DNA of 64,000 bases from Bolinopsis microptera (Eukaryota > Ctenophora > Tentaculata > Lobata > Bolinopsidae): contig NC_087076.1 in assembly GCF_026151205.1 (NCBI RefSeq), forward strand, positions 17,843,419 to 17,907,418, given 5' to 3'. This document shows, piece by piece, positions 17,670 to 56,569 of this stretch. The notes under the pieces were generated by a model. It searched no databases and had not been told where the DNA came from. It was given only the letters and a program-made list of their open reading frames with translations. Within the stretch, counting starts at the first letter, position 1; the number at the start of each line of letters is the position of its first letter. The position numbers and the translations under genes were made by a program.

Positions 17670-19607
17670 TCAATATCCTAACAGAGATAATTTTGCCACA
17701 TGATCAGTTTTTCGTTTAGTGGGCTTTAGATAACCCATGAAATGCAGCTCAGAGACAGCAGAGATGAACTGAGCATGAGTATCGCTACTGATCTTTTTCT
17801 TACCCAACATCGTATTGAAAGATTGAATCCAGTCATGAAGCGATATCAGTTTACCATGCTCATGAAACAAGTCATACAAATGACAAAGATCGGGTTTGGA
17901 TGTTTTTTCTGAACCTTGTAAGTACAAATTAGGATTGGTCAAACCCCTATGGAGAGCAGTTCGACATTTCCCTACCAACACGTTCTGAAGTTCAATGTGG
18001 TTTGAATACCAAACAATTTCATTCATTGGCCATGAAGTTGGAGCTGTAAGGGTGCTGAAATAATTTTCTAGTCGAGAAATGAAAGACAATTGAATTTCTT
18101 TCAGTTTTTCAAGAGATGCTTTTGTTTCATCCTTGTCGGTTTTTCCTTCAGGCATATTTCCAAAGATAGCATCCATTTCGTCAATTTGTAGTTTGATAAC
18201 TTTCATGAGAAGCTGTATTTTGGTGCTTGGACTTTTGATGTTTTGGCATTCATGGTATGTACTTTTCAAGCGCTCAAGAAAGGTAGAACTTTGAAGCATT
18301 CCAAAGCATTTTAATGCAACACAGACTTCCTTCTCTTCATGGACACAACCTTGCAGACAAAATGAATACAGCTCCAGGGGTTTACTCACAAGATTACTTC
18401 CAGGAATGTTTTTTATCAAATTATGTAATACTTTGAAACTGTAGAATAGTACCAGATAATTTTCATTACACTCTTGAAACATTTGATCGATTGCACTATT
18501 ATCTCCTTGCAGAAGTTTAAGAGCATAAGTCTTATTTGATACAACATTCTTTTCTACATGCTTTTGAACAGATGGCAATTGCAAAAAAAGTGCCTTTTCT
18601 TCACCACTAAGATCAGTTGTTTTGAATTCCAAACCATTTGCAGTTGCTTGTAAGTATTTGAATAGAGGCTGTTGCATGCTATGAGTAAGCAAAGCTACAT
18701 CAATTGTTTTCATCACATCATGGAGGCTATAACTCGAGAAACTAAACCTACTTAGAAGAACTTCAAACGTTCGGTATGACAGCTTGAAAGGAGTCTCAGT
18801 TCTTAGAAGAGAACTGAACAGTACCCTCTCCAGAAGCAGAGTTGGTGATGGTGGAGTAATTGTTGCAATATTGAGTTGACTTATTGCTGTTGAAGACATC
18901 CATTCTGCAGAAAGTTCTGTCCCAGTTGATAAACCCAAGACAAAGAATAGAGGGAATCTCTTATTTCTAGAAGAGCATACCTCAATAAGTTTGTCCATAA
19001 CGGATGATGGAAGAACATCAAAACGTGGAATGAAAAATACAATTCCATTACTAATCTGGCTTTCCATGACATGGTTGAACAAACCTTTCATGGAGAGGGT
19101 TTTACCCAGGATCTTGTTGGCGTCATCATCAGATGTCAATATCTGATTAAAAACATCTTTCAAGACAGAAGTAATTTCAGAATTCTGGGATGAATTTATG
19201 GTTGCACATTGCAAGTTTAAGCTTTCCTTTACTTTCTTTGAAGCAAGCTCATAAATGGGTGAGAATTCCTGAAAGTTAACACCTATTTTAAGAGTTAATG
19301 TTGGGATACCAATGTTTAGAGAAGCTTCAAGTCCATTTTGGATGAAGGTTACAATTTCAGAAGCCATGTCTTTGTTAACTTCATCTAGGATAATCTCAAT
19401 GGCATCTTTGAATTTCCTTTTGGTTACAAGGTACTGATCATATCTTGTAGATAATGACATTTTTGATTCCTCAGTAAATAAGTAGGGAAACTCAGGAGAG
19501 CGCTCACGTCTTTTAGAAGGTTTCTTTACAAAACATCCAGTTGATAGAGAGGTAAAATCATCCATTATTTTACAACCTGGATGTATATTGTTAACAATGA
19601 AGTTCAT
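17670..19607 (-). CDS. ORC3: Origin recognition complex subunit 3 (ORC3), intronless
   Basis: A single uninterrupted frame of about 645 aa. The N-terminus has the ORC3 signature after a short leader (STGCFVKKPSKRR, like the GCFV.KP of vertebrate ORC3). The centre has the degenerate AAA+ fold with FPLFFVLGLST and LLLERVLFSSLL. The C-terminal winged-helix region ends AVSELHFMGYLKPTKRKTDH, almost identical to other animal ORC3 proteins. ORC3 pairs with ORC2 in the complex that loads MCM helicase at replication origins, and it does not bind ATP itself. The first ATG is at 19607, but the methionine at 19565 (MDDFTSLS) is the better homologue start. The vertebrate protein is about 65 aa longer. Lack of introns contrasts with neighbours and could mean descent from a retrocopy that stayed intact. 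Confidence 0.93.
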   Translation of the reverse strand: MNFIVNNIHPGCKIMDDFTSLSTGCFVKKPSKRRERSPEFPYLFTEESKMSLSTRYDQYLVTKRKFKDAIEIILDEVNKDMASEIVTFIQNGLEASLNIGIPTLTLKIGVNFQEFSPIYELASKKVKESLNLQCATINSSQNSEITSVLKDVFNQILTSDDDANKILGKTLSMKGLFNHVMESQISNGIVFFIPRFDVLPSSVMDKLIEVCSSRNKRFPLFFVLGLSTGTELSAEWMSSTAISQLNIATITPPSPTLLLERVLFSSLLRTETPFKLSYRTFEVLLSRFSFSSYSLHDVMKTIDVALLTHSMQQPLFKYLQATANGLEFKTTDLSGEEKALFLQLPSVQKHVEKNVVSNKTYALKLLQGDNSAIDQMFQECNENYLVLFYSFKVLHNLIKNIPGSNLVSKPLELYSFCLQGCVHEEKEVCVALKCFGMLQSSTFLERLKSTYHECQNIKSPSTKIQLLMKVIKLQIDEMDAIFGNMPEGKTDKDETKASLEKLKEIQLSFISRLENYFSTLTAPTSWPMNEIVWYSNHIELQNVLVGKCRTALHRGLTNPNLYLQGSEKTSKPDLCHLYDLFHEHGKLISLHDWIQSFNTMLGKKKISSDTHAQFISAVSELHFMGYLKPTKRKTDHVAKLSLLGY

Positions 19608-20773
19608 CAATAAACATAACTATCCTATAATTTAGTATAATATACATTTAAAAAATAAGAATCACAAAGTATATTATTGTAATCATTGAGATAAATCCTT
19701 CTTATATCTTGATTAAGTCTATATGTTTCTATTTTTTTAAATATATAATATACACATGCAACAGACTTCAGGTTAACTTGGCTGAATGATCGTTCCCAGA
19801 TGATCATGGGGCCACTGCTCTCGACTTCGGAACCCCCCCCCCCCCCCCCCCACTGTTTACCTTGCAGCAGCTGTAGCAGCCTGACATACTCTCAAAATAT
19901 GATCACATTTCTTTCTAATGAACAACTGGGTCCTTTTACCAGCCACAATAAAATTGATCATGCCAGTACTGTCATAAACTGTAACCAACTATTTAAAAAT
20001 TAGATATCTTTTGCTAAATTTTAAATTTTAAGTCATAGAGCAATCTTCTCAATTTTAAAATTTTTAAGAATTATATTTTAACTATGATGTGGTGGCATTT
20101 CATACTTAACTAAATTTCAACTTTGAAAGTAAATAGATTATTAGTGACAACAAAATTATAGTTTAAGACATCCATTCTGCATTGTGTTTCCAATATTAGA
20201 ATTTATGATATGTATTGATTGAATAATTGGTAATAAATTTAACTTTTGTTTTATTACTTTTGTTTTATTAATATACTCATTTTAAATCAAGTTCTCGTCC
20301 ACTGTCAACTCGGCTGCGGTATTTTGTCCATATGTTGCATTGTCTTCCTGTGTCCCCGTCTTCCTGTCGATGCATTCTATCGAACCTGGTCCATACTTCA
20401 AGCAATTTTATGTTTGACTTATCGTCCAATGAAATCGCTGCATTTTGCAAGTCATTATGTATAATTAAATCAATTGTTACAATTTTGACTTATTGATAAC
20501 AACAATTATTGCTCTTAGAGGAGAAAGAGGGATAAAAAGTGGTAGTGCAGTTAAAATATAGTGGATTAAGATATAAATTTAGAACCAATAAACTGAATCG
20601 GCTACTATTTTACTACTTAAAGGGTTTTTATCAAATTTATTTATTCAACCTATGTCCCTCGTATGTAAAAGAGCGGAATGGAATCATGAATAGGACAGCA
20701 GGATGTGAGAATGCAAAAAAAACTGGTACGTACAGAAAACAAAAAAGACCAAACTACGCCTAGGAAGGGTTAA

Positions 20774-22702: not shown

Positions 22703-25700
22703 ATGAGACAAGGTGGGCGCAAATTCCAATTTCTTGATTTTCACAGACATCATTTGAACAGAAAAACTTTTGAAAGTTGTGTCTGGGTGAACAAGGAAGA
22801 AGGAATATTTAAAGTGCGATGGCCGAAGGCACCAAAACAATCAAAACCTGAAGATTTGGGTATTATGTTTGAATGGTGGAATCTTAGAATGGGAAATACT
22901 AAACAGTACGATGAACCTTCCATGATCAAGAATAACTACAGGTAAGAATTTGTAATTTATTGTATGCAGATCGTCGGAGAGGTGAAATGTGTTTGCATTG
23001 TTTAATGACATTTATGATAACACAGAACTCACAATTTTGCTTACAAATTTTCGTTTTAGCAATAACTACTTCTTTCCAATGATATCTGCTGTTTCCAGAT
23101 CTGCCCAGAACTCCAAAGGTAATTCAAAAGGATTAAAGAGACGAAAAGATCTAGAGTATGGTGATGGAATTGGCACACCCTGGAGAGTACTCCAGTTTAC
23201 GGATATAGTTGTGGAACCTAAAGAGCCTGATGAAACTGATCCCAGGTAAACTCAAAAAATCGTTTCCACGGCATTCAGCCGTGATCAGAGTCAATGAAAC
23301 AATAAGTTTTCAATAATAATTTCAAGAAAAGAATTCGTATTTTAAGAGAATAAGTTCTCACTTTAGATTATTTCCAAGTTTTCAAGCAATAAAATTGATA
23401 GAAACCTTGATAAAAAATCCGGAAAGATTAAAATGATAAATTGTAATGTGATCAATAAGTTTAATATGGTCTCTACGTTTTATAAGTGATCTGAAATGTC
23501 TGAGAATAAGTTAGTTAGATTAGCTGTTATTTACTACTTCACTTTTCAGTATAACTGATCCAAACGGAGGTATAGCTGTTTTTGATCCAGGCGAAGCATA
23601 TGCTGATATTATTGTTGATGGGGAGTTTGAAGAGGTGAAGAATGGCAACCAAAAGTGGGAAATCACAGTCACGGTATTGCTATGTTTTCTTTTCATTATT
23701 TAACATTGTTGTTATCGTGTTTCACGATCATTAATGATAGTACAAATATCAATTTAGTGGTCTTACATGTTGAATTATGAAATTTAACTAGATTACACTC
23801 TACTAAATATAATCGCACTATAGGACTTAGAATTTTTGCCCTAAATAACCCAGTAGGAACTTCCAGTTTCTCACAACAGTTTGTTCTGAGAAGGCATGTA
23901 ATGGCTTCCAGAGCACTTCAAAACTCTAAATAACTATATATACATGATGATTCAGTAAATCTAGCAGTATTTAGCAAAGTTTTTTCGGCCCTTTACAAGG
24001 ATAAAATGAGCAAGGAATATATACGATTCTTGTCTTTCCCACTTTTAAACAAACTGACATAGCAACACTCCTTTCTACCTCAACAGGCGTTTGGTAAAAA
24101 CCGAACAGAGCTCTGGAGTTATACTTACGATTTTGCAAGGGAAGGATTTGGAAAGAAGAAACTGCTTGTTTATGTCAATGGTATGTAACTTTAATCCTGG
24201 GAATCTTTACTATGCTACTTAACTGATGTTTTGACGTTGCCTTACGTTGTCTAACGATTGAACTGTTACATTATTTGTTGATCATATACCAGTAGTGGTC
24301 ACTAAAACATGCTTTGATCAGGTAAACGGGCAAAAAATCTTGGAGAAAATCTAAAGAAGAATATCCATAACTTAGATATTGAAAATCTCAATTTGGACTA
24401 CCCTATTGATCCATCTTTACATAAAATGTTTAGTGAGGAATTTTTCGATCCCAGGTACCCACATGATTACAATATTAGATTAAAATCTTTTTTATTAGGA
24501 TGCCAAATAATTGGTATAAAGTTATAATGTCAGACTTTGATAGCTTTACTGGTTATATAATTTGTATATTTTTCAAGCATCTTCAGTTTTTATTTTTCAG
24601 GGATACCAAAAAACCGTTAACTACTCAAGATACGTTTTGCCCTGGTTTTATTTTGGAGGTTGACAACTGCTTCAACGTTTTTGTTACCAGGTAGATTATC
24701 ATGGTTTAGCATGAAAGTAATGTGATTTTTCAATCCAGTACAACTGACATGACTAAAAATTGAAAAAAGGACAACTTCTTCACAATGCCATATTACTTTT
24801 AATACTCTGATTCTCAATGTGCTAATCATGTTTACTATTTTTCTGCAGGTTGAGCATGGCACGAATTTACTATGGGCACCATGGTGAACAAAACCAGTGG
24901 CAAAAACTAGAATGGATGAAAGATGGTAAACGATACCTAGATTCTATGGAATCGCAAGGTCTGTAGTTAAACATATTTATCAATTTTTTATAGTTCAATT
25001 ATCTTACTTATAATTCAAAAAATTATTTTTGTCTGTATGTACGACCGCCCACGCGCAAATTAGATGAGAAATAAGAATTTGCAAAGTAACCATGGTAACG
25101 AGGGTTATTACACGCACATGCACGTGCAATGACTGTTTTAACGTCATTTTGATCGGTTTTGTTGATAGTACGCTGTGTTTAGTACGAACATCATTATAAT
25201 TGGCTTCATCTTCGGTTGTGTAGGATATTTTTTGACGCGATTTAAACTTACTAACAAAAAATACTATTAGCTTCCTCCCTGTGACCACGGGTTTTCTAGT
25301 CTCTACTATAATTCAGAAAATTCTTTTTGTTGTACGACCGCCCACGTGCAAATTAGACGAGAAATAAGAAGTTACATAATAACCATGGTAACGAGGGTTA
25401 TTACACGCACGTGCACGTGCAATGACTGTTTTAACGTCATTTTGATCGGTTTTGTGAAAATTACGCTGTGTTTAGTACGAGCAACATTTTAATTGGCTGT
25501 ATCTTCGGTTCTGTAGGATGTTTTTGACGCGATTTAAACTAACTAACAAAAATACTATCAATATTAGCTTCATCCCTGTGACCACGGGTTTTCTAGTCTA
25601 TATTATAATTCAGAGAATTATTTATGTAGAATGTACGACCGCCCACGTGCAAATTTGATGAAAAATAGGAATTTAGGTAACAACCAAAAGGTTCCATAGC

Positions 25701-28444
25701 AACGGTGTTTTAATGCACACATGCACGTGCAAAGATTGTTTTAACGTCATTTTGATCGGTTTTGTGGTAATTACGTTGTGTTTAAAGTGTTTTATATTTA
25801 AATCGGCTGTATCTTCGGTTGAGATGGATATTTTTTGATGCGATTAAAAATTCTTTCAAAGAATACTTCTAGCTTCGTCCCTGTTACCACGGGCTTTCTA
25901 GTCTTACTTATAATTCAGATAATTATTTATGCTGTATGCTGTATGCTGTGCGACCGCCCACGTGCAAATTAGGCAAACAAATAGAAGTTGCATAGTAACC
26001 ATGGTAACGGGATTCAAAAGCGCACGTGCACGTGCAAAGATTGACGAGCGACATTTTTATCGTTTTTTTTGTTATTACGTGGTGTTTAGTGCGAGCTAAA
26101 TTTGATTCGGCTGTATCTTCGGTTGTGGCGGATATTTTTTGATGCGATTTAAACTTATTAACAACAAATACTATTAGCTTCCTCCCTGTGACCACGGGTT
26201 TTCTAGTCTATATTATAATCCAAAGAATTATTTCTGCTGTGTAAAAATAATGTATGATGTACGACCGCCCACGTGCAAATCAAACGAAAAATATGAATTT
26301 CCGTAGTATTCATGGTAACGAGGGATATTATGTTATTACACGCACGTGGAACTTGCAATGATTGTTTTAACGTCATTTTGATCGGTTTTGTTGATATTAC
26401 GCTGTGTTTAGTACGAGCAACATTTTAATTGGCTGTATCTTCGGTTGTGTAGGATATTTTTTGACGCGATTTAAACTTTCTAACAAAAAATACTATTAGC
26501 TTCTTCCCTGTGACCACGGGTTTTCTAGTATTTATATAATTGTATGTACGACCCCTTCTACAAGAATGTACGACCTCTCTTCTGCAAACTCATTTAACCA
26601 TTCCTTCCTAATTCTTGCAGTATGAGTTCCCTCTTCAGCCCTCTAAATACCAGCCAGCATAGTTGATGTTCTAGGTCCTGAAAAATTGAAATCATTGTTC
26701 AAATCATTTTTTGAAATCATAATAACTGTAATGTCAAAAAATCTTCAGATGGTGTAAAACAAATGGTATTTTCGTACAAGAAGTTCATTCGTACCTCCAG
26801 AGTTTACGAAAATTGGCTAGAACAAGGTCAGTTTCCCGCTCAGTCAGCTCAGAATGAACAGAAATTCTCAAATTTATTTTAACTTTTCTGGTTCAGTAAT
26901 TTTTCTGTTTCATTATGCTATTTCTTACGATCAACCTCAACCACTCAACCAGGCAAGCCTGAGATAAGCCTGGTAGACTCAAAGGTATTGATGCCGGTTG
27001 ACAATGTACCAAGCATGCAAAGGGGATGCGATTCTGGATGTGACTTCTTCTTCGAAATAGAACACAAACCTGCAAGAAAGATATATAAGCAGATAAGACG
27101 CAGGGAAGAACAAAACCCGCCTTCAATATTCGTAAGAGGATAATATTTTAAAAGAACGGTAATCATAGTTTTGCGCTCAGAAAACGGGTCAATATTTCCA
27201 TGCTACCCAAATTCACAAATTGGTATTTGATGCAAAATGCACGTTACTTGTAACTCGCTCACATATTGATTATTTGTAGCTCAAATTGCAGGTGAGTGAC
27301 CCATTAGACGATCTTTTTGGGAATATGACAGTTAACAATGAAAACAACGGAGTAAACAACGTGCATTATGGAGCAAACAACGTGCATTATGGAGCAAACA
27401 ACGTGCAAAATGGAGCAAACAACGTGTATTATGGAGCAAACAGCGTGCAAGATGGAGTAATAAGCGTGCATTATGTAGTAAACAACGTGCAAAATGGAGT
27501 GAACAATGTGCAACATGGAGTAAACAACGGGGATTATGGAGCAAACAACGTGCATAATGGAGCAAACAACATGCAAAATGGAGTAAGCAGCGTGCAAAAT
27601 GGAGCAGGCTTCGTGCAAAATGAAGTAAACAGCGTGCAAAATGAAGCAGGCACCGGGAAAACTTACTCCATTTCTCAGGTTATCTTCTATGCAATTTTAA
27701 TTGAACAATCAACATAATATTGTTGTCATATTATGATATGGCTATTCTCATCTCTCGACATGATCGTTATTCGTTATTGTAGTTTGCGTGTCTGACTTAG
27801 GTTTGTTACCATCCACACTCCACAGGCAAATGCAATGGATACCAACACCTTCGGTAAGTTTTATCAAATTGAGAAATCGTTGACGTTTAGCTAGACATCT
27901 ATCATAAATAACTATTTCCCTCAGCACTTTATTTCGACTATTTCACCAAATGCATTTAGGATGTTTGCTCATATGGAAACTTTAGACCACCTCCACCTGC
28001 TTTACCAAGAAATAAAACGAACTGAGTGATAATAATTTCAGAAAATTGATCAATGAACCTTGAACGGTACAAACAAACTCTGTTGGAACCCCTCCAACTT
28101 TTACGCAAAAAAAGGAAACTTTTACGCAAAGCTTTTACGTAGAAATTACATTAGCTTAAACGTAGGCCTACGTAGGCTACCTACGTAGGCTACCTACGTA
28201 ATATGCGTCATGCGAATGATCCGTATTATAATATTTTCCGGGAACAAACAAAACTCTGTTCATAATACAGGTCTTGATCAGACTTTTCTTTTTACTGTTC
28301 AAGTTTTCTTGTCGCTTGTGTTTTTATATTACTATACTGATATCTGCAGGTATTTGCAATCTGTGTAACTGTGTCCTGTGTAGCTGTAGAAAAGGCTTTC
28401 CCTTCGAAATCAGCAATGAACTCAGGACATATTATCAGATATAG
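22703..28444 (+). CDS. Interferon regulatory factor-like protein A with heptad repeats and Cys-rich tail
   Basis: Twelve exons: 22703-22941, 23099-23245, 23550-23673, 24087-24180, 24322-24454, 24601-24690, 24849-24958, 26749-26826, 26953-27131, 27292-27678, 27826-27853, 28350-28444; 567 aa. Residues 1-115 are an IRF DNA-binding domain: CVWVNKEEGIFKVRWPKAPK aligns with the W..K....F.IPWKHA block, FEWWNL with the LFRSWA helix, MIKNNYRSA with the DNA-reading helix, and PWRVLQF with the last strand. Three of the five family tryptophans remain. About 171-398 is the IRF-association domain (GFILEVDNCFNVFVTRLSMA resembles the 'L.L.....Y..RLCQ' core). Exon 10 encodes about 15 heptads (NNVHYGA type), and the tail has a C-x2-C-x-C-x3-C-x-C cluster. 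IRFs are nuclear transcription factors. A splice acceptor sits 1 nt before the ATG. It is the tandem partner of the gene at 29679. Confidence 0.88.
25005..26535. repeat. Five tandem copies of a ~300-bp unit in IRF-A intron 7
   Basis: Copies are anchored by 'acgaccgcccacgtgcaaat' at 25041, 25334, 25635, 25950 and 26261. Each contains 'taacgtcattttgatcggtt' (partly altered in some copies), a TGCACGTGCA-like palindrome, and ends with 'tgaccacgggttttctagt'. The periods are 293, 301, 315 and 311 bp. IRF-B intron 7 lacks this array and is about 160 bp long. Confidence 0.95.
27337..27651 (+). repeat. Coding minisatellite, 21-bp unit, about 15 copies
   Basis: Within IRF-A exon 10 each 21-bp unit encodes one heptad of the form N-N-V-x-x-G-A/V, with a variable pair HY, QN, YY, QD, QH, DY or HN at positions 4 and 5. 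Frame is preserved throughout, so changes in copy number would change protein length only. Confidence 0.93.
28095..28245. repeat. Palindrome-rich repeat in IRF-A intron 11, shared with IRF-B
   Basis: Starts at 'acttttacgcaa' and contains the near-palindromic run 'acgtaggcctacgtaggcta' with repeated 'cctacgta', then 'ttccggga'. A nearly identical copy lies at 33093-33217 in the matching intron of IRF-B. Confidence 0.85.
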
Positions 28445-29678: not shown

Positions 29679-32600
29679 ATGAGACATCAAAGACGCACAC
29701 TCTCGTTTCTTGACTTTCACAGATTCCATTTGAACAGAAAAACCTTTAAAAGTTGTGTCTGGGTGAAGAAGCAAGAAGGAATATTTAAAGTGCGATGGCC
29801 AAAGGCGCCAAAAAATTCGAAACCTGAGGATATGGGCATATTGTTTGAATGGTGGAACCTCAGAATGGGTAATACTAAACAGTATGATGAACCTTCTATG
29901 ATAAAACAAATTTACGGGTATGTTTTTACATTATTGCGGCCTATGGGCCAAATCTTGGGTTTTAGGGTAGACCAATTTATCGCTGTGAAGAGTATACTAA
30001 AAATGGTCTTGTTTTTCTTATGACCTTCACAATCAGGCGTATACATTGATTCAATACTGCTTTATAGATTGTAAGCAGTAACTAGGTACCTTGCTGCCCA
30101 AAATTAAAATCTTAACTGTTTGCAGGTCTGCTTTGTACAATAAGATAACGAAATCAAAAGAATTGAAGAGGCGAAAAGATCTAGAGTCCAAAGATAGAAT
30201 TTGTCCATTCTGGAGAATCCTCCAATTTACTGATGAAACGGATATAACTACAGATATGGAGATAGGTGATACTGATTGGAACACTAGGTAACCGTTTTAA
30301 AAGATTTCCCTCAAGTTTACAAGAATTATGTTATGTCTATTTAGAACCTACCAAAAAACTGCCTGTTTTCTAATTTGTACTAAAATTGGTTCCAGATAAT
30401 AATACATTATTATTTCAGTATAACAGATCCAGATGGAACTCTGTTTGATCCAGGTGACAAGTATGCTGAGACTGTTCTCAACGAAGAGTTCCAAGAGGTG
30501 ATACTTGGGAATCAGAAGTGGCAAATCACCATCACGGTATTTAAGTAATTTCTTCTTTTATATTATTACTAGACTTGATTCGTAAATGTTTGTTTAACCA
30601 TATGTCACGTCTGATACTATTTCATTATGACTTTATGAGGGCGAGGTACACTTAATTTTCTACGAATTACGATCTTGATACCTTAGATTGTTTATGTCGG
30701 TCAAGAGATAGGTTTTTCAACTATAAAATAGAAATTACACAAAGGGCAGGACTCGGACACTTACTAAACAAATACACCCGCAGTGTATTCTCCCAAAACC
30801 TATTGTGAAAATGTGACCATTAGGTCTCCACAGGCGTTTGGTAAAGACCGGACAGAGCTTTGGAATTATACTTACGACTATGCAAGAGAGGGATTTGGGT
30901 CTGGGAAACTTCTTGTTTATGTCAACAGTGAGTGAATGTAGTATATTTATTCGGTGTAAGGGTATTTCTAACTTTATATAGGCTCTGTGAACATTTTTTG
31001 AAATTTAAACTGTGAATAACTAAACTGAAATGTTTCATTATTTTTTGATAGTAGCTGTGATTAATTTCTACTTTTCTCAATTTCTCAGGTAACCGGGCAA
31101 AAAATATTGGAGGACATCTTGGGAAAAAGATTAAAAACTTGGATGTTCGAAATCTGAACACACACTGCCCTATTGATCCTAGCAAACATGAAATGTTTCG
31201 CGAGGAATTTTCTGATGCAAGGTACGTTCGTGAATTGAATAAGTATCCCTCTCCTTATTAGTAAACTAGTATGCCAAAAATAAAGGCTGAGTATTTTACA
31301 TTCATAGCTCCGGTATTATAACCATTTATTTTATAGTATATACTATATTATCAGTTTTTCTACTCTCAGAAATCTTAATACGAAGTTCACAAGACAAGAT
31401 ACGTTTTGCCCTGGTTTCATTTTGGAGGTCGACAACTGTTTTAACGTTTTTGTTACCAGGTAAATTATCATGTTAGACTGACTGAAAATATTATGCCTGA
31501 TTATTTTGCTAATGCTCTTCCAAATGAGCTCATAATATTTACTAATATATGTGGTTTACAGTTTGAGCATTACAATGAGCTCATAATATTTACTAATATA
31601 TGTGGTTTACAGGTTGAGCATGGCTCAGTTATTCTACGGGCACCATGGTGTACAAAACCAGTGGCAAAAACTTGAACGGATGACAGATGATAAACGATAC
31701 TTAGATTCTATGGAATCTCAAGGTCTGTAGGCGATAATGATCTATTTTGTAAAACGTTATTGCAACTGCATCATTGAATACATTTTGATACAAATTCTGG
31801 GAATGTTGATTTCGTGCAAAAAGATCATGTTGATCCGTGATTTATCATTATTCACCAGTAAATTGATATAAAATATTTCAGATGGCGTAAAACAAATGGT
31901 ATTTTCGTACAGAAAGTTTATTCACACATCCAGAGTTTATGAAAATTGGCTAGAGACAGGTTAGTTTCTGCCTTATATACCTAATCTTACCGAATATACT
32001 CATTATTCGCTCACTTGGAAAATAAAAAAGGGGGAAGTATAAGGGGAAATTTAAACAGGAAATGCAAAAGGGGAACTGTAAAACGGGAAATTCAAAACGG
32101 AAATATATAGCGGGAATGTATAAGGGGAAGTCTAAAACGTGAAATGGAATGAAAGCGGTATCTTTTGGTTATTTTATGGGATGAATGTATTTGCCAATAT
32201 TCACGAACTGACAATAGAATTAAACCAGGAAAGCCTGAAATAAGCCTGGTAGACTCGAAAGTATTAATGCCGGTTGACAATGTACCAAGCTTGCATAAAG
32301 GGTGCGATTCTGGATGTGACTTCTTCTTCGAAATAGAACACAAACCTGCAAGAAAGATATATAAGCGGATAAGACGCAGGGAAGAACAAAACCCGCCTTC
32401 AATATTCGTAAGAGGATAATATTTTAAAAGCTGATACTATGTACTATGAGCACTTCACATTCGCCCTAAACAAATATTGTGGTAGACATATTTCATTTGG
32501 TGGCTGCATATACGTTTGAATTTTCGGCAGTTCAGTTAACTTTATGATCCATTAATAAGAAACCCTGCATTCTCTTCTTGTGATAGGTAGATTTCTATGA

Positions 32601-33414
32601 TAAAATTTTTTACAATGCCTTTTTTATCATTACAATTTACAGATAAGTGACCCAAAAGATGATCTGTTATCGGAGTCTTTCAAGAAAATAGCACTGACCG
32701 ACGAACCGAGGATCGTGCAACCTGTCTGGACAACTTGGCCACTTCCACAAGGTATTTAAATCGTTATATTCTTCAGACTCATTCTCCAGTTCCCTGTTTC
32801 ATAAAATTGAACTGTGTGTATTATAAATAATATTACATTTAAATCTAAAAGATACCACTCACTGGTCCACTCAGGCTGGGAGAAAAGATTTGATAATAAT
32901 TCTAGACGACATCATTTTGTGAATCACCACACTCAACAATCCCAATGGGATGATCCTAGAATTTCCGTCTATGAGGAAGAACAACGAGAGGTAAATTATA
33001 AATAGCGTTTTTTTGCTGTAGTAACCACTAATTCGCTTATTACTATATATAGTAGTCGTAAACCAGTTTTCGGCCATTCATAACCCCTCCGCTAAAAACT
33101 TTTACGCAAAGCTTTTACGTAGAAATTACATTAGCTTAAACGTAGGCCTACGTAGGCTACCTACGTAGGCTACCTACGTAATATGCGAATGATCCGTATT
33201 ATAATATCTTCCGGGAATTGTTTCCCCGAAAAGTCGTGGAAGCGTCGGGCATTATCGCCCGTAGCACTCAACAGCCAAGGTATTATTGTATTATACTCCC
33301 TTACAAACAACGTTAAGTGCACAGAACCCTGCATACCTCAATATGAAATATTATCGTTTAGTGTCCCAGAAACTGATCAGTGGCGTAACGAAGGGCCCCG
33401 CTGATCCCGCTGTG

Positions 33415-33451
<37 letters not shown>

Positions 33452-34428
33452 TCTTAGGGGGGGGGGGGGGGGGGGGGCGCCAAATCGTCGTTTGAATGTG
33501 GGACAGTTTCGAAAACTTAACTAAAGTACTAGCAAAACTGCGCGTTTTGCTCTAGATACACAATTTTTTAGAGATTTTACCGGCGTATCGTCTAAAATCA
33601 CCTAATATGTTCAATTTTAGGGAGGGGCACCAAAAGGGTAGGGGCGCCAACAGGGGGGCGCTTTTTCGGCGGGGGGCGCCAACAGGCAACGTTACGCCAC
33701 TGAAACTGATAATCGCAGAAGAAGACTGATAGTCGTAATATCATATTTGTAGTGCTGTTGGGGTTCTTGTTAACTTCATCGGTCGGCGCGGTCCTTACTG
33801 TTGACCTTAATCCAACTTATCTGGGGCCTCTAAAATAGAGGCGATGTCGCTGGATTATTGATCGGTATAAAATTTGTTTTATTAATGTCTTATCGTATCA
33901 TGACTGCACTTGTAACCTGATAACAATAAAATGTCTGTCGATGAATAAACTAGAACCAGCTTCGCTGCATATTACATAATCACTTTTTGAACAATTTTTA
34001 CCCCCCACCCGTAATCATTTGGAAACCCTCCTCCCCCCTCGGCTGATTACGTACTATGTGAACAACCACTATAGTGCATAAAATGGATAATCATCAAATA
34101 ATAATTCAAAACCATTACCACTTAACACTTTTCAGGCTAAAGCTATCGAGGAAAGCGCAATTGATCATGGTAAGCAATCTTAAACAATAATCTCAGAATG
34201 TAAGCAATACTTTATAACCCCCTCTTCTGAACATACAGTTGTTATAAGATAGAAAAGAGAGGAAGCAGTTAAGGCGACCATCCAGTCATGGGTTAGAAAC
34301 ATTTCATAATTATAACTGATACTATTTTCATATTTTAATTCTAAATTATTTCAGCTCTTCGTGATTTGGGTGACGATTTTCTGTTCAACGAAATCATGTG
34401 CATCCCCGAAATCATGTGCACTCCCTAG
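29679..34428 (+). CDS. Interferon regulatory factor-like protein B with C-terminal WW domain
   Basis: Thirteen exons: 29679-29917, 30126-30287, 30419-30536, 30834-30927, 31089-31221, 31370-31459, 31613-31722, 31882-31959, 32229-32407, 32643-32751, 32875-32990, 34136-34169, 34355-34428; 511 aa. Exons 1-9 match IRF-A one to one with the same phases: IRF DNA-binding domain (1-120) and IRF-association domain (about 173-401). Exons 10-11 encode a WW domain at about 434-466: PLPQGWEKRF, then HHFVNHHTQQSQWDDPR, with Trp439, Trp462 and Pro465 and the hydrophobic-Phe-Val-Asn core intact. WW domains bind proline motifs such as PPxY. An acidic stretch and a duplicated EIMC motif end the protein. Continuity is supported by matching phases and by exon 10 starting ISDPKDDL, parallel to VSDPLDDL of IRF-A. 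The acceptor lies 1 nt before the ATG. No cDNA is available to prove the last four exons join. Confidence 0.87.
31522..31612. repeat. Tandem duplication of the IRF-B exon 7 acceptor region
   Basis: A segment of about 48 bp, 'gagctcataatatttactaa' through 'tgtggtttacag', occurs twice in a row (ending at 31563 and 31612). Both copies end in a usable AG. Only the second continues into the exon 7 reading frame GTTGAGCATGG; the first is followed by a near copy, TTTGAGCATT. Confidence 0.9.
33093..33217. repeat. Palindrome-rich repeat in IRF-B intron 11
   Basis: Partner of 28095-28245, with near identity across 'ttttacgcaaagcttttacg' and the repeated 'cctacgta' block. Presence at the same intron position in both paralogues suggests it predates the duplication or was spread by conversion. 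Confidence 0.85.
33378..33702. mobile_element. hAT-like MITE in IRF-B intron 11, 8-bp target duplication
   Basis: A 13-bp inverted terminal repeat, CAGTGGCGTAACG at 33378-33390 and CGTTACGCCACTG at 33690-33702, is flanked by the 8-bp direct repeat AAACTGAT (33370-33377 and 33703-33710). The interior is dominated by poly-G runs of about 30 and 18 bases. The end sequence CAGTGGCG and the 8-bp duplication are typical of hAT elements. No transposase. Confidence 0.92.
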
Positions 34429-37400
34429 TGGTTTCCCATTTGAATTGAAATTAAAGCTCAGAATAAGATGGAAATTTACTGTGGAGATGTATAACTGTCT
34501 TTAATAATACCTTGTGAAATACTTTTAATGATCATTGTTAAAATAAGGTAATAACTGATAACTGATTTTATGATAACACTTTTGATCTAGCTGTTTTTAG
34601 AACTGTTTTATGATTTTTTATATCTTTAAAATCCGTTTTATAAGTTTAAAATAGCCAGAATTAGTAATTTATCATTAAACTATATTGCAGATAGAAGTAT
34701 ATTTTAGAGTTTTGCATCATGTAAGCCAGGAAATTGGAGCCATTCTGAACCGCAGTTTTAACATCGTAGCTTAGATTTATAATTAATAATCATATATGGA
34801 GGATTTAGTCAGCCTATTAGTACTGTGATCAGTGAAAAAGCAAACTCAAAATCTACCAATCCATCCTTTGGCCCTCTGCCCATTTCACAAAATGAAATAT
34901 ATTTCTTGGCTCATGTTGTGTTATAAAAATTCATTCGACCCTTAGCTTACGGACATGCTGCGTTACATTGTACATCTGATAAGGGATTACGTCACCCCTG
35001 CATATTGCATAAATGGTGTTGCTCGTTTTTAAGCAAAAATTGTGGTAAACTTGACCATGAACTTTCTTTCATGTTAGTATGTTTTACAACAAAATTTCGT
35101 TTTTCTTCTTCATTAAACTTAGATCTGGAAAGAAACTGCTGTGTGTGATTTTTGCTGAGTACATAAATTTCTTTCAAAGGTAATTGTAGACAGATAATTG
35201 ATAAAACGAATTTCCCCGGATGATCTAACGTGCATTTCAGATGATTTAATGTTTTACTTTTGACTTTCGAATATTTTGTACTTGTTATTGTTCAATTTGT
35301 AAGGCGCGTAGAGATAATTGTAAGATATTGTAGCGCAAAACGGACGCGCTCGTGCATAAATTTAAACACATGTTACGTTCGTTCGCATAGCTTATACAAA
35401 ACAAAAATGTTAACATAATATGTTCGTGATCGTAATTGTAACTTACCTTCACCGCATCATCATATCACCAGATTTCATGTAAAATTGAACATAGTATAGC
35501 AAATCATGACAATTTCAGTCACCACTTCACAGGTAAGGTTAGAACAGAGCAATTGATCATAACTAAACACAAAACACGATTGAGGTATATCACAGAATTC
35601 AAGATTACCGAAAAGCTTTCATAAACTGAAAATCATAAGAATAAAAGGAGAAATGTCAGAAGATTTTTGAAGAGAAGCTTTAGCTTTTCTGCCGTTTCTT
35701 TAACCGAAATTTCACAGTTTGATTGAATTTTTACCAGTGACCAATCAGTGAGGTCGGTTAGAGTGACACAAGCCGCCATCAAGGGACTGGAAGCAGTATA
35801 TCCGGAGAAAACTTTGATGCAATGAAAATTTTGAATATGTCCTACCGGTACGACATATTCGAATTTCAGCTTTCCACGACCCAAATTTCACTGTTTTGAC
35901 TGAATGTTTCTGGAATGACCATCTTACAATGTCACTGAGGATGGCACAAGAGGTATTCAAAGTTTTACTCTCAAAGAAAGCTTTGGTAAACGAAAAATCA
36001 TCAGAATATGAAGAGATTTTGGAAGATTTTGAAGAGGAGCTTTTCTGCCGTTCCCTTGACGGAAATTTTGGCCAGTGACCAATCAGTGAGGTCGGTGAGA
36101 GTGACCTAAGTCGCTATCAAGGTACTGGAACCAGTATATCCGGAGAAAACTTTGATGAAAGGAGTATTTGAAAATGTCCTTCTGGTAGGACATTTTCAGA
36201 TATCAATTGTGACTTGATATTGTGACTATATATATTATATCGATCCATTTTGTTGTTTGTTGTGCAAACTGATGGTAAAATGTTTTTCAACACTATATTC
36301 GCTAAGTGAAGTCGATGTAATGCCTGGTCGGTGGAAACTAAAGCTATCTTGTGAGAAAAATATTGATCATTGAAACGATTTTGTCATAAAAAAGTAATAT
36401 CCAGATTTTCAAAAGAATCAAACTGCGCCTGCGCAGATTTTACAATTAAAGTTACAAAATCAAATGTAGACTATTAATATAGTCTACAATCTCAGCTATA
36501 TTAGTATAGTCAATCAATTTAAAATCGTCACTCAACTCGAATCCGTGAATTCATATCAGATTAAGTTTATGTTAATCAATCTGACCAGCAAATCTATTAC
36601 TCAATAAGATGACAAATCTAAGACAATGTCGTAATTCGAGAGAGAAGCAGTCATAAGTCATTAGAAATTCGACATTAGCGAATTTAAAATCCGTGTAAAA
36701 CTATATCCAAACTCGAAGCAAGCTATGAACTATGTATCTACACATTCTACAGTCTTGTGTTAGGTCATTCCCTTAAGTCGTTAATCCTCCCGAGGGAATA
36801 ATCTTTCCACGTTATCTGAAGTATTAAACGAGTGTTAATTTATCATAAATCATAATAATAATTGTAATCATCTATCAATAATCCTATTATTTTTTACGTT
36901 TCTCGTGAATATGAAAAAATCACCATCGAAAATTTGATCTCCTCTTATCTTTGGAAATATTTCATCAAATGTGACTTTAAAGAAGAATAGGAGAAAAAAT
37001 TTCAATCATGTTCTGTCATGTTAGTTGTTACGATAGAGAAAGCAGTAGATTTAGAAATGTTCTGTTGTAGATTTAGCTGTCTACGCTGCAACTGTTAGGA
37101 TTTGTGATTCATATCACAGCAAATTTGTCATCTAGCAGAGCAGTTGGGTTTCTTTAAAACTCACATAGCTGATAGCGTGGTGAAGTGGATAGCGGTAAAA
37201 ACACTAAATCATGAAAAAATGAACATGGACAGGTGCCACTTCTCCTTCCCCTTCACCGACAATTCGAGAGCTGACGTCCGATCCAAACATCGATGAATCA
37301 TGAACCGACGTACTAGATGACTGGATCGACATGCACGTACACAACGTGCGACACGATAAATAATTAAGCGCGTGACGCGCGTGCACGGAAATAGCTCGAT

Positions 37401-37583: not shown

Positions 37584-38545
37584 TTACCAAAATTCTCGAG
37601 CTGCTTCGACGAACGCAGTGTTGATGTCGAAATAAACGTACGGATAGTAATCTCCAGCCATGAACACACCAGGAATATCGCCCATCTGAATCATTGTACA
37701 GTGTTACTTGTTAGTGTGTCTTATTATCATAGAACAGAATCAGTTTTAATTAGAAGATAGCAAATGATGCAAATTAGCCGGGGACTGACTACATATCAGG
37801 ACCAGTAAACTGATTACTGGTAGGCCTAGCGGTCCGATATCAATCTTACTATATATAAAGCGAGACGATATATATGGATATATGGATCCGTGCCATTTTA
37901 CTGACACCAGGGCATCAACTTTAACGCGACTTTCCGCAAAAACCGTAAAAGATATACAACTGAAACTTTTTTGACTGGGTCAAATGCTTTAATGGCCTTC
38001 AAATCAGCATGAAAAAATTAAAAATTGGCCAAGGAATAAGAATTTGAGTGCCCCAAATTTGGACTCCCAAGTGGTGTCAAAAACGCGAATTAAATAGGTA
38101 ATAATTATTTTATTCTCTCGAGTCTTGACACCACTTTAGGGTAAACGGGTTCCTGCTAGTAACTATAAACTATGATGTGACACTGACGTGTCATAAATTT
38201 TGTGCTCATCAGTATTTAGCAATGAATAGCATTTACATAGTCATTTTATCAGTAAACGAGATGTAGTTATAATATCTCAAAATGATAAAGATCTTTACAA
38301 AATTAACCTCCGGTCCCTCAGCAGCACTTTTGTCCAGATTACTGTACAAAACGTGCAATTTCTCTCGTAGCTTCTTTTCTGACTTTTTGTTTGGTTCAAG
38401 CACGGCTGTCTAAAAGTAATTAAATTGTTAACAAAACTTATGAAATTTTAAATGAGTAATAAATATCTTTGCAACAGTGGTACTGTGTACAGTTCGTTAC
38501 ATTTAGCCCAACTCAGAACTACAGTGAAGCTGAAAGTACCACAAA

Positions 38546-38584
<39 letters not shown>

Positions 38585-41500
38585 CCCCCTCCCCCCTGGC
38601 CCCCACAAACCATGAACGTTGCAGGGAGACCGTATCTGAGAACCGACTCAGTGAACAGTCTCAAAGCTTTGACGTGAATCCAGTTAACAAAAGCTTCGGA
38701 GAAGTTCCCTTTCAGCCATCTTATCAGCGGAACATAAGCTTTTATTTTAGCTTTCTGTAAGTTGGTAATTTCGTTTTGCTGCTGATTTATCTTATCTTTG
38801 CTGTACTGGAAATCTCTGAAAATATTGCACATCTTACATAAAATGGCTAGAACCGACCATCTGTTGTGAAAGTTCAATAAAAACAATTCAAAAAACCACA
38901 TAGATGAACAAAATGTCATCAATACCTCCAAAAAACACCTCCACCATCCAACTAACCTGACAACAAACTTTTTCTCCCTAGCATTGTTCTTGAAAGCGTC
39001 TAGCGTCTTCCTGAACATGGTGACAGTGTAGAGAGCCTGGTCTCCCTCTTCAAGGATACGTTTGGAGGATTCAGGCACGACAAAGTCTGCTAACTTCCAG
39101 TAACTACCCTCCCATTCCTTGTATCCTTGTTTGGGAACAACCACACAGACTGTTACTAGATACTCCGATGATGTCACGAAATCCTGGAGATCCGATGGTC
39201 AATATCTGGATAAACTGTCAAATAGTTCAGATAAATTTTCGGATCGTTTTAGACATTTGCCGACAGAGTACCTAATTCAAATTGTCCGCCAACGTTCGAA
39301 AATCTGAATCACAAAGCGAGAATCTATAAATGACTCCTTGATGCTTTCATGAAATAATGTGTTGGTTAGTATGCTGAAATTAGTTAAACCGACAGACTAA
39401 CCTCCTCATTAACAATGGGTCCCAAGTTTCTGGTGACCAGACTACCTGTTTCTTTCTTCTCGTGCTGAGCTAGATTCTGAGCAAATGAAGTTAGTTAAAA
39501 CTGAGGCCATCGCGTCACTGATGATGCGGATAAAGACAATTGTTTAAAATTATAAAGTTATTTGTGAAAGGCTGACTAAGATTCTTTCATGTGAATTCTA
39601 TAATTTAGAACAATCAAAGAAGCGATACAAAAAATGTTAACTTTCTTACGCTTCTCAGATTATTGTAAGTAGTCGATTTCGTTTTAAAATCCTTTTCAAT
39701 CTTTGTCATGTTCTTAGCTATGATGTCATGGATGTCTTTGATGGAGACTTTGGTTGGGAACTTTGCAACATCCCAAACAAACGAATTACAGTAGCTTCGG
39801 AGGTCCTGCAGAAATGAGAGGCTACATCACGAGTAAAGAACTGTATATAAACTTTAAACCATGTTTTATGATCAGATTTTTAATATGGAAATCGATTATG
39901 CGTGATGATTAAATATCACATTACTGATTGATACACAGAGGCACGTTTAAACTAATCCATTAAGGTTAGAGACTGTGCACGACATCAACTTCCCATCAAA
40001 TGATACGATCGGTGACCGACAACTAGGAACCTCTCATTTCGGCCTCCCACAGGTATCACATCACATGGCCCAATCAGTGACGTATCATTTGTGATGTGAT
40101 CCATATTATAACCATCCTAACAGCCGGACAACCAAGAACCTGGGTAGGGTTCACATGACAGTTTAGTAAGTAGCTGTGTATTATGAAGTTTGAGCTCTCG
40201 GTATGTGTTCACATTACGGATGTGAGCCGGGTCCGAAAGGGGCTGGTTCTCGTATCCAAGGATGTGAGCTGAGCATGCAATGGGAGTGATACGAGACATA
40301 CAATCACAAGTGCGAGAGTTGATCAGCTGTTAATATACAACCGCACTTCTGGTATATATACTGAAACGAGAACATGAAGAGTATCGGTTTCAATTCAACA
40401 TGCCTGCTTTCTCCAAATTCATCTAAGGACAGAGAGGATCTCAACAGCTGGTGGACACGGATGACGGACGGGTACATCTACTCGGGTACATCTACTCCAA
40501 ATAACATACTACATCCAAGCTAACTATCCTCAGTTAATGGTTGTGGTAAATTATTTCGAGAAAATCTACCTTGGGTCAGTAACTGTCGACAGTGACGAAA
40601 GGGTTCCTCCCAAGTTTCCTTTGACGTTCTGGAATCACTATTCCAAGACGTTGGAGGATCCGGAGTTTCCCCGGACCTCTCACATGGTCGAGGGTTTTCA
40701 TCGTGGATTTAAATCCAAGGTGAATCGACCTAAGCCGACCGTGCAAGAGTACTTCCGTGCTATTCGGGAGCAGCAGGTGATCATTGATTACCATATCGAT
40801 CGACTGGGTGTTGGAAAAACTCCGTCTAAGAAAAGGATTAGAAGGAAAACTTCCAATGACCAGTTGTTCCAGATCTGTTCCAAATACTCGGATTGCTCTA
40901 GCAAGGTTGACTATCTGTTTGAGATTGCCAAATACTTTGGCCATGAGATTGATATTGAGTAATGTATTCTGTATGTAATTATTATGTTGGGTTTGAACTA
41001 TCATTATCTTGAAAATAATCTTTGTCTTAATTAATGAGTGCAGAAATATATACAGCACAGCTGTGAAATCGGTGGACACCTGAATGTTTAAAGTATCTCC
41101 AGAGGTTCCTAGTTGTCGGGGATATGTCATGATTGGTTCCTAGTTGTCGGAGCTGATTGGATTTCCCAAGCTTGCATGTTAATTAGTTAACAAGGTAAAA
41201 TTGAAAGGTTCCTAGTTGTCCGTCAGCCGATACGATGCACTCTCATAATCGAATTTGTGCTGGAATCTAGTAAAAATCAGAAATTACCAACTAAAGGCTG
41301 CTAGCACTGAAAGAAAAACATTAAAATTGCAAACCCCAAACCTTGTTGTTAGCCTTGGTGTACTCAGGAAGTTTCTGTAGGTCGTTCTCCTCCAGCGCAT
41401 TTGCCATGTAGTTGTAAACTTTTACCATTATCAACTCTGTGAACTGGTCCAACTTAGCCAGATCATCTGACAGGGACATCAAAGCATCTAGAGTACCAAC

Positions 41501-54420: not shown

Positions 54421-56569
54421 TCAGAAAGCTAGAATGTTATCCTGATTGTAGCCAAGTGCCTGAAAAGCGGGCAGACAGGCCTGTTTGATAAGACCCGGAG
54501 GTCCACAGAGGAGAATAACAGTGTCGTCAGCTGGAGGAGGCATGTACTTCTCTATCATTGCTTTGTTAACTCTACCGGTTGCGTAGCACCAATCTGGGGA
54601 GCCAGGGATTGGTTACTAACTGGTCACTAATTGGTAACTAACTGGTAAATAATTGATTAGTAACTGCAGATCACTCCTACTATTATATTCCTATATTACC
54701 CTACACTCCTACTGTTACCCTACATTTTATGATGCAATTCGCTTGATGAACATTGTACCACTATTTAGATTTCATGGAAATAATGGAAAAGCAAACCTTT
54801 AGGAATGGGAGCCTGGGACAGGGTATGACAAATTTTAAACTTGGGACAACACATCTCATCCAGTGCTCCTCTACAAAGGATGTCGTTCTCAGTCTGATAT
54901 TATAATTTTTTTAAAGTTACACCATGAACATTATGTAAATTGTAAGTACAATTATTCCATTTTTAATACTAGACACATTGAAATTAATAAAAGCAACGGA
55001 ATTAGGTTTCGTGACGGGTTCTTGTCAAATGACAAATAATAACCTAATTTTAAAATTCTGGCCTATATTCTTCTAACATTGAAGACTGAAAATCTTGAGA
55101 AACGCATCAAACATGATATTTAGTCAATCGAAAACATACCTTGTTAGAAAATAAAAGCGTCATTTCAGTGTTGTCATTACGGTTCTTAACCACATCTCTG
55201 ATCAACTGCAACATCGGAGTTATCCCAGAACCTCCAGCTATCATTCCCATACGTTTGCAGTTTAACTTGATGATGTTATCTCTTGATTTCTCCACTTCGA
55301 AAACTCCTGGGATATGCCATGATTAATAATCTACAAATAATCCGAGTGACGAAAATTACAGCAATGTAATATAAAACGGGAAAAAATCTTAAGTTCCTAT
55401 TTCGTATACTCGAGATCTCAAAGTAAGTACCTTTTCCAAGATATCGTATTTTGCCGCAGGGTCCTCTAACTTTAATTTCATCACCAATACTTAAAGAATC
55501 CATGTAGGTCGACATTTTTCCGTCTTTGTAAACTTTTATCATGAGGTCCATGTATCCGAATTCGTCGTCACTGGTAATTGGAGTGTAAGGTCGAACTACT
55601 AGTTTTCCATCAAGTATAGCTGACACATTGATGAAGGAACCTGTGAAGCAATTGCGGGTGTAAATTGGAAACCCCTAAGCCCTAAGGTTATATTTCATGG
55701 ATTTTGAATAATTTAAACTTTGAAGTATAAAAATTAGTATTATTTGGAGAGTTTGCCCGGATGAAAGATTTTTAGGAAGACCTACCTACAGGAAGTCCAA
55801 GTATGTGGTCAGAGCTCGGAAGAGAAAACCGAAACTTTCTCGTATCATGTGACACTATCTGAATTTGAATTTATAATTACGATAAACCAATAAGAAATGT
55901 TTCTTCATCAGACGATTCAATGGTTGAACAGAGATTTTGTTGGTGAATAGTGTCTGATTGCACGAAACTTGACAGCTATATATTTAACACCAAGGGTACA
56001 AACGCTTCTAGAAGATTTACATACTGTTTTTGCGAGCAGAGTAAGGGCGACTTTGTCACTCTTATTGAGGGTAGCATAACTTTTCTTCTTCCGAGATAAA
56101 CACCACATCGTAATCACAACACCAACCAGCGCTACTGTCACCCCGACAACCTGGGCTACAGTTTACTCCTTAATCAATAAAACTCCTTAATCAAGATTAG
56201 TTCCATCATAAAACATTTGGTAAGTTTTCAAATAGATGATAGGTCTATGAGCCAAGGATAACTTTAAGTAGGTTCTTCAGCAGAAAAAGGCTCGATACAT
56301 ACAGTGTGCAGCATGCATAAAATCAGTTACAACAAAGGCTGTTTCAAACTGAAAGCAGATGTTAATGAAGTTCCTTTGTCTTGTTTGTATGTACTGTGTA
56401 TTGAGTTAGCAATTAAGTGTAAGTTGCAGAGGTATTCATCATGTTGTGCTCGATATTACGAGATTGTAAACAATCTGTAATGCATTATCGGATATTACAT
56501 CTATAGAACAGTGTTTATAACTATCCCAGCGATGCCATTCACAATCTTACCGTTGGCCAGGCGTTCCAT
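54421..56569 (-). CDS. NADH-cytochrome b5 reductase, membrane anchored
   Basis: Seven exons on the minus strand (56569-56551, 56155-56025, 55858-55786, 55640-55431, 55306-55140, 54893-54797, 54593-54421) give 289 aa. Residues about 8-25 are a hydrophobic anchor ([16 protein letters not shown]) followed by RKKK. The FAD-binding motif RPYTP is at 91-95, the NADH-binding motif GGSGITPM starts at 169, and LLCGPPG is near 260, where CGPPP is usual. The enzyme passes electrons from NADH to cytochrome b5 for lipid desaturation and related reactions on the ER or outer mitochondrial membrane. It resembles vertebrate CYB5R1/2/3 without favouring one. Exon 1 is only 19 nt and was chosen because its phase fits; this part is tentative. 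Confidence 0.94.

What the first reader, a model, noticed from the sequence alone, without database searches (positions are those of the whole stretch)
29679..34428. IRF transcription factor fused to a WW domain
IRF-B carries an IRF DNA-binding domain, an IRF-association domain and then a complete WW domain (Trp439, Trp462, Pro465). Described IRFs have no WW domain. This would join an interferon-type transcription factor to PPxY-ligand recognition of the Hippo/NEDD4 kind. Frame and phase are continuous through all thirteen exons, and exon 10 starts like the paralogue exon 10 (ISDPKDDL vs VSDPLDDL), so the fusion is not simply a neighbouring gene.
Basis: partly seen in the sequence, partly recalled or inferred. 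Interest (0 to 1): 0.88.

Follow-up and report, generated by a model that had tools for sequence, protein, structure and literature searches.

The report
Comb-jelly IRF gene with WW domain
In a comb jelly, one of two neighbouring copies of an interferon-regulatory-factor-like gene carries a WW protein-binding module in its tail and has also lost a key DNA-reading amino acid, a combination not found in the searches made here.

Summary
The architecture is real. IRF-B's 13 exons splice cleanly (GT-AG) to 511 aa and equal, from Met52 on, NCBI's Bolinopsis microptera protein LOC134814807. Pfam WW scores 39.9 bits, cut-off 26.9; W439, W462 and P465 are as stated. The WW is not a neighbour's: exon 10 alone carries the paralogue-like SDPxDD start and the first WW residues. 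Exons 12-13 match IRF-A's exons 11-12 in phase, and exon 13 matches IRF-A's tail in another frame. A second such WW exon exists in an unnamed ENA contig. The IRF DNA-binding domain is genuine but divergent: IRF-A 36.8 bits, IRF-B 26.7, cut-off 27. The IRF-association domain was not convincingly detected. PPxY recognition is doubtful: the usual Tyr/Phe is His, and the usual His is Tyr in the relative. New: IRF-B and B-type exon P0001 have Gly for recognition-helix Arg82, which IRF-A and Mnemiopsis keep. Best reading: a paralogue turned from DNA reader towards WW-guided partner or adaptor; function untested.

The parts
29679..29917 (+). IRF-B exon 1: most of the IRF DNA-binding domain
   Evidence: pN/pS to IRF-A 0.28 over codons 8-51
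30126..30287 (+). IRF-B exon 2: rest of recognition helix (Arg82 position is Gly, its codon split between exons 1 and 2) and linker
30419..30536 (+). IRF-B exon 3
30834..30927 (+). IRF-B exon 4: start of conserved central domain (IAD-like by position only)
31089..31221 (+). IRF-B exon 5, central domain
31370..31459 (+). IRF-B exon 6, central domain
31613..31722 (+). IRF-B exon 7, central domain
31882..31959 (+). IRF-B exon 8, central domain
32229..32407 (+). IRF-B exon 9, central domain; within a 208-bp stretch 94.7% identical to IRF-A DNA
32643..32751 (+). IRF-B exon 10: paralogue-like SDPxDD start and first WW residues (PLPQG) in one exon
32875..32990 (+). IRF-B exon 11: bulk of the WW domain (W439, W462, P465)
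34136..34169 (+). IRF-B exon 12; same phases (0 to 1) as IRF-A exon 11
34355..34428 (+). IRF-B exon 13 and stop; counterpart of IRF-A exon 12, read in a different frame
22703..28444 (+). IRF-A, tandem paralogue in 12 exons, no WW (NCBI LOC134815216): the comparison gene

Best explanation
IRF-B is one intact gene, one of two tandem ctenophore IRF paralogues, whose tail after the conserved central domain is a WW domain where the paralogue has a repeat-rich tail (shown at the level of gene models). In the same paralogue the recognition helix has Gly for Arg82 and one extra residue (shown by alignment). Inferred: IRF-B no longer reads the standard GAAA element by itself. It works as a partner, adaptor or decoy that keeps the IRF body, perhaps pairing with IRF-A, and uses the WW to bind a proline-rich partner. 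My odds: about 0.93 that the architecture is as stated, 0.37 for the partner/adaptor mechanism. I lowered the latter from 0.4 on recheck, because positions 86-87 of IRF-B look like IRF4's.
For: Clean splicing, and identity with NCBI LOC134814807 from Met52. WW 39.9 bits. Exon 10 contains both the IRF-A/Mnemiopsis-like SDPxDD start and the WW's first residues. Shared introns have the same phases in A and B; B exons 10+11 take the place of A exon 10, and B exons 12-13 that of A exons 11-12. One of three frames of B exon 13 matches the IRF-A tail, 0 of 2000 shuffles reaching the score; only IRF-A itself scores higher in the window. dN/dS between A and B is 0.25 over 396 codons of exons 1-9. WW exon P0007 has the same apparent splice borders and passes the Pfam cut-off (31.1 bits). 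Residue 82 is Arg in IRF-A, Mnemiopsis and P0002, Gly in IRF-B and P0001. That R82, C83, N86 and S87 touch GAAA in IRF1 is from passages of PMC7819612 and PMC6543449.
Against: No transcript was seen, and NCBI's evidence class for its model is unknown to me. That model starts at Met52, inside the DNA-binding domain. P0001 and P0007 come from unnamed sources and are not shown to lie in one gene or even one species. P0001 and P0002 are single-exon ORFs ending at position 82, so their last codon is read into the intron: Gly is safe there, P0002's Arg depends on its exon 2. As aligned, IRF-B has Asn at 86 and Lys at 87, as the IRF4 chain has, and Ser at 83 as IRF-A has; so only Arg82 and the insertion set it apart. 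The central domain has no convincing IAD similarity, so pairing with IRF-A is a guess. The WW ligand is unknown.
Confidence: 0.53

Rival explanations
1. The WW exons belong to a separate neighbouring gene and the fusion is a gene-prediction artefact.
For: Two models can share one error; no RNA was examined.
Against: Exon 10 carries both parts; downstream exons 12-13 are the counterparts of IRF-A exons 11-12; no other WW found in the window.
Confidence: 0.04
2. IRF-B is an ordinary DNA-binding IRF; the WW adds recruitment of a co-activator or of a NEDD4/Hippo-type partner through PPxY.
For: Group-I His is present in IRF-B's own WW; nearest PDB WW domains are ITCH, NEDD4L and WWP1; positions 86-87 as aligned are IRF4-like.
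Against: Arg82 is Gly in IRF-B and P0001. The groove Tyr/Phe is His in IRF-B and P0007, and the group-I His is Tyr in P0007.
Confidence: 0.27
3. The WW is ancestral in ctenophore IRFs and was lost in IRF-A and Mnemiopsis, whose tails became repeats. (A question of origin, compatible with the others.)
For: Tails of IRF-A and Mnemiopsis P0006 are repeat-rich and differ from each other; only three full-length proteins were available.
Against: IRF-A and Mnemiopsis share a Cys-rich tail end (GICxLCN) and IRF-B has an out-of-frame counterpart of the IRF-A tail, so the non-WW tail end looks older; not decisive.
Confidence: 0.2
4. IRF-B is a decaying copy and the WW has little function.
For: Exon 13 is out of frame relative to IRF-A and has an 18-base duplication; WW specificity residues differ in P0007, and its WW exon is no better conserved than the intron beside it.
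Against: All 13 exons open, dN/dS 0.25 to IRF-A over exons 1-9, both Trp and the Pro kept in P0007.
Confidence: 0.16

Closest known systems
IRF family transcription factors (Pfam PF00605; IRF1/IRF4 DBDs in the PDB)
   Same: N-terminal DBD; Trp26, Trp38 and Trp58 columns kept; 19 of the 20 PDB profile hits up to E 10 are IRF chains, matched in their DBD; IRF-A and Mnemiopsis keep Arg82, Asn86, Ser87
   Different: IRF-B has Gly at 82 and one extra helix residue; no convincing IAD1; C-terminal WW
WW domains of ITCH / WWP1 / NEDD4L
   Same: LPxGWE start, NH, second Trp, DP end; best PDB matches
   Different: One extra residue near loop 1; His in place of the groove Tyr/Phe; a single WW on an IRF body, no other Pfam family matched in IRF-B up to E 1
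YAP/TAZ, WW-bearing transcriptional coactivators (YAP from passages of PMC4301871; TAZ recalled)
   Same: WW joined to transcription machinery
   Different: YAP is described there with a TEAD-type binding domain and, as listed, no IRF DBD; Pfam found no such binding domain in IRF-B
Mnemiopsis leidyi ACHWQZ_G010614 (P0006) and IRF-A LOC134815216 (P0005)
   Same: Same central domain and SDPxDD element, same DBD type
   Different: Repeat-rich, Cys-containing tails without WW; Arg82 kept

Membership tests
IRF | IRF DNA-binding domain by profile | tested here: met
   DBD-only IRF-A 36.8 and Mnemiopsis 29.2 bits pass cut-off 27; IRF-B's own DBD 26.7, just under, full-length 22.8; PDB profile of five ctenophore sequences best 1if1 E 2e-4
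IRF | Tryptophan cluster | tested here: inconclusive
   Trp26, 38, 58 columns invariant; Trp46 absent, but the IRF4 chain has Tyr there too; Trp11 lies outside the PDB fragments aligned
IRF | GAAA-contact residues R82, C83, N86, S87 | tested here: not met
   IRF-B: 82 Gly, 83 Ser, one inserted residue, then Asn and Lys as aligned (the IRF4 chain also has Asn, Lys). IRF-A and Mnemiopsis: R, S, N, S. Contact list from passages of PMC7819612
IRF | IRF-association domain (IAD1, PF10401) | tested here: inconclusive
   No Pfam or PDB hit; hhalign no better than shuffles; of 15 pairwise tests two (Mnemiopsis against two IRF4 chains) reach z 4.5 and 3.6, the one alignment inspected being out of register. 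Profiles are shallow: IAD against SMAD3/2 MH2 gave only E 0.0055
WW domain | Profile score over cut-off with both Trp and the terminal Pro | tested here: met
   39.9 bits, cut-off 26.9; W439, W462, P465
WW group I (PPxY-binding) | Aromatic residue in the xP groove and His of the Tyr pocket (residue identities recalled) | tested here: inconclusive
   Groove position His in IRF-B and P0007; pocket His present in IRF-B, Tyr in P0007
WW group I (PPxY-binding) | Binding of PPxY peptides | not testable with these tools
   Needs an assay

The most novel reading that the evidence does not exclude
A ctenophore IRF paralogue has been rewired from DNA reader to signalling adaptor: it lost the arginine that reads GAAA and has a WW module where vertebrate IRF3-type factors carry their phosphorylation-controlled tail (recalled), so that a proline-rich partner rather than DNA directs it, tuning IRF-A next door.
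Probability: 0.3. Interest if true: 0.75.

Novelty: new variant of a known kind. Interest (0 to 1): 0.56.

Why it matters
Ctenophores are often placed as sister to all other animals (abstract starts listed), so their IRFs bear on what early IRFs did before interferons existed. An IRF that traded GAAA recognition for a WW module would show that IRF bodies can act without reading the usual site, and would offer a natural separation-of-function copy beside its DNA-reading twin.

Tried and rejected
Rejected: neighbouring-gene origin of the WW.

Tried without result. IAD by Pfam, by PDB profile, by hhalign local against 60 shuffles and global against 80. Of 15 pairwise tests, 13 were at chance; Mnemiopsis against two IRF4 chains reached z 4.5 (0 of 200 shuffles) and 3.6 (1 of 200). 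I discount these because the one alignment printed (5bvi) is out of register with the strand motif I expected. A 25-residue IAD motif profile gave best scores reached by 806, 297 and 69 of 2000 shuffles for P0004, P0005, P0006; only in the first two is the best place near the expected one. MH2 comparison did not beat the best of 60 shuffles. NCBIfam gave nothing relevant. A viral-contig scan found nothing. DNA alignment of the last exons of A and B was not significant (69 of 300 shuffles reach it), although the protein-level test in one of three frames was. Dating the WW gain failed for want of named relatives.

Literature searches: 17, 20, 24, 25, 27, 28, 53, 58, 65, 70 (10 of 10 used). 
Full report
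Origin. A protein search with the spliced IRF-B (residues 1-432 scored; candidates limited by the tool to about 0.55-1.75 times its length) returned 3 proteins with E up to 1 among 2319 candidates. They are P0004, NCBI 'uncharacterized protein LOC134814807 [Bolinopsis microptera]'; P0005, LOC134815216 of the same species; and P0006, a Mnemiopsis leidyi hypothetical protein. P0004 equals IRF-B from Met52 to the end, and P0005 is the C-terminal part of my IRF-A model. The window is thus from the ctenophore B. microptera or something extremely close to it.

Gene model. All 13 exons of IRF-B at 29679-34428 join with GT-AG borders into 511 codons and a stop. IRF-A lies upstream at 22703-28444 in 12 exons with the same phases at every shared intron. 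Over exons 1-9 the two share 75% of aligned residues, dN/dS 0.25 over 396 codons, so both look maintained. The N-terminal 51 codons that NCBI leaves out also look translated: pN/pS 0.28 over codons 8-51 and 0.37 over codons 1-51. The ORFs P0001 and P0002 and the Mnemiopsis protein start at about the same Met.

The WW is inside the IRF gene. Pfam gives WW 39.9 bits at 435-465. Exon 10 starts with ISDPKDDL, the counterpart of VSDPLDDL in IRF-A and TSDPSDD in Mnemiopsis, and ends with PLPQG, the start of the WW; exon 11 holds the rest. B exons 10+11 run from phase 0 to phase 0, like A exon 10; B exon 12 runs 0 to 1, like A exon 11; B exon 13 starts in phase 1, like A exon 12. Of three frames of B exon 13, one matches the A tail (CxxxxC...GFPFE...LR): none of 2000 shuffles reaches the score, and across the window's segments only IRF-A itself scores higher. 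The frame used by the model (ending IMCTP) does not match (826 of 2000), nor do the DNA sequences align better than shuffles (69 of 300). The WW therefore sits between IRF exons. No other WW was found in the window.

A second copy. The WW exon as query gave 1 candidate and 1 hit, P0007, 60 aa, on an 841-base ENA contig. Counted by eye on the alignment, 32 of 39 exon residues and 15 of 16 residues of upstream intron translation are identical, and the apparent borders coincide. P0007 passes the WW cut-off (31.1 bits). Its species, and whether it sits in an IRF gene, are unknown. The exon is not more conserved than the flanking intron, so selection on the WW is not shown.

DNA-binding domain. With the A3 profile, 19 of the 20 PDB sequences up to E 10 are IRF chains, best 1if1 at E 2e-4; the other is unrelated and at E 1.3. 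By Pfam, DBD-only IRF-A 36.8 and Mnemiopsis 29.2 pass the cut-off of 27 and IRF-B at 26.7 does not quite. Aligned to the IRF1 and IRF4 chains, the ctenophore proteins keep Trp26, 38 and 58 and lack Trp46, as does the IRF4 chain. IRF-A and Mnemiopsis have R-S-N-S at positions 82, 83, 86, 87. IRF-B has Gly at 82, Ser at 83, one extra residue, then Asn and Lys; IRF4 has R-C-N-K. So Arg82 and the insertion are what sets IRF-B apart. P0001, a B-type exon, also ends in Gly, and P0002 in Arg; both end at the exon border, where P0002's Arg depends on the next exon. R82, C83, N86 and S87 are the residues that touch GAAA in IRF1 (passages of PMC7819612, and PMC6543449); PMC7819612 also says these elements are well preserved in invertebrate IRF1-like genes. 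The WW-bearing paralogue is thus also the one with an altered recognition helix.

Central domain. It is strongly conserved among the three ctenophore proteins and lies between DBD and tail, where IAD1 lies in vertebrate IRFs (recalled). By eye its end (ISDPKDDLLSESFKKI) recalls the IRF5 end (ISNPDLKDRMVEQFKEL, printed). Tests do not bear this out. No Pfam hit and no PDB hit. hhalign E 0.32 with several shuffles scoring higher, and global hhalign near the shuffle mean. Pairwise alignment was at chance in 13 of 15 pairs; the two exceptions, Mnemiopsis against IRF4, are discounted because the one alignment inspected is out of register. MH2 likewise fails. The profiles are shallow, so absence is not shown either.

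WW chemistry. Nearest solved WW domains are ITCH, NEDD4L and WWP1. Aligned with seven of those WW stretches, IRF-B and P0007 have one extra residue near loop 1 and His where all seven have Tyr or Phe. IRF-B keeps the His that all seven have after Asn/Asp; P0007 has Tyr there. The role of the second Trp in the xP pocket and of a Tyr-specific second pocket is from PMC4301871 (passages); which other residues line them is recalled. PPxY recognition is therefore possible in IRF-B but not safe. Neither IRF-B nor the NCBI IRF-A and Mnemiopsis proteins contain PPxY or LPxY, so they are not obvious ligands of each other through these motifs.

Mechanism. Shown: one gene model, WW in an IRF body, changed recognition helix. 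Inferred: weak or no GAAA binding; action through a proline-rich partner; possible pairing with IRF-A through the central domain.

Literature. One search (four terms including WW domain) listed 0 papers. One search listed 1, not read, a review of DNA sensors by its title. One search matched 280 papers with at least 3 of 4 terms, of which 10 were listed and none was about an IRF with a WW by title or abstract start. One search (ctenophore plus interferon regulatory factor) listed 10; of these, passages of PMC11193209 were seen. Passages of PMC11251625 and PMC6321704 from other searches were also seen. None of these passages speaks of ctenophore IRFs; the other papers were not opened. The Mnemiopsis immune-genome paper PMC11797021 has no occurrence of IRF or interferon in its main text (word search). 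PMC2885996 (passages) reports IRFs in sponges, placozoans and cnidarians; ctenophores are not named in the passages seen. Most subscription papers are not held, so a description elsewhere cannot be excluded.

Verdict. Function untested.

Noticed in passing
window 34355-34503 (+): Exon 13 read in another frame continues as a Cys-containing GFPFE...LR tail like IRF-A's; by phase, skipping exon 12 would use that frame (the skipping is my inference).
   Followed up: partly
window 32223-32430 and 26947-27154: Exon 9 of the two paralogues lies in a stretch 94.7% identical in DNA (dS 0.19; exons 1-8 0.45-0.97), suggesting recent gene conversion.
   Followed up: partly
window 27349-27648: IRF-A exon 10 contains a 21-base, 14-copy tandem array that codes for NNVxxGA-like repeats; Mnemiopsis has a different repeat (SNSGQYS) in its tail.
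   Followed up: no
window 33096-33217 and 28116-28244: A roughly 125-base element, 93.8% identical, with a partly self-complementary core (CCTACGTAGG), in non-equivalent introns of both paralogues; perhaps a mobile element.
   Followed up: no
window 25029-26541: A 293-base tandem repeat of about 5 copies fills most of IRF-A intron 7.
   Followed up: no
P0004, P0005: NCBI models of both paralogues start inside exon 1 (Met52 of IRF-B, Met55 of IRF-A), cutting off about half of the DNA-binding domain, although the upstream codons look constrained.
   Followed up: partly
window 17673-19619 (-), 38506-39198 (-), 46040-47854 (-), 49144-50787 (-), 55279-55674 (-), 57214-59607 (-): Neighbouring open frames by Pfam: ORC3; V-ATPase subunit C; RIC1; an AHD (ANC1 homology domain) protein; an FAD-binding oxidoreductase; and a large ORF with a weak NERD match below its cut-off.
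   Followed up: no
window 6554-8065 (+): A 504-codon open frame without any Pfam match up to E 0.01.
   Followed up: no
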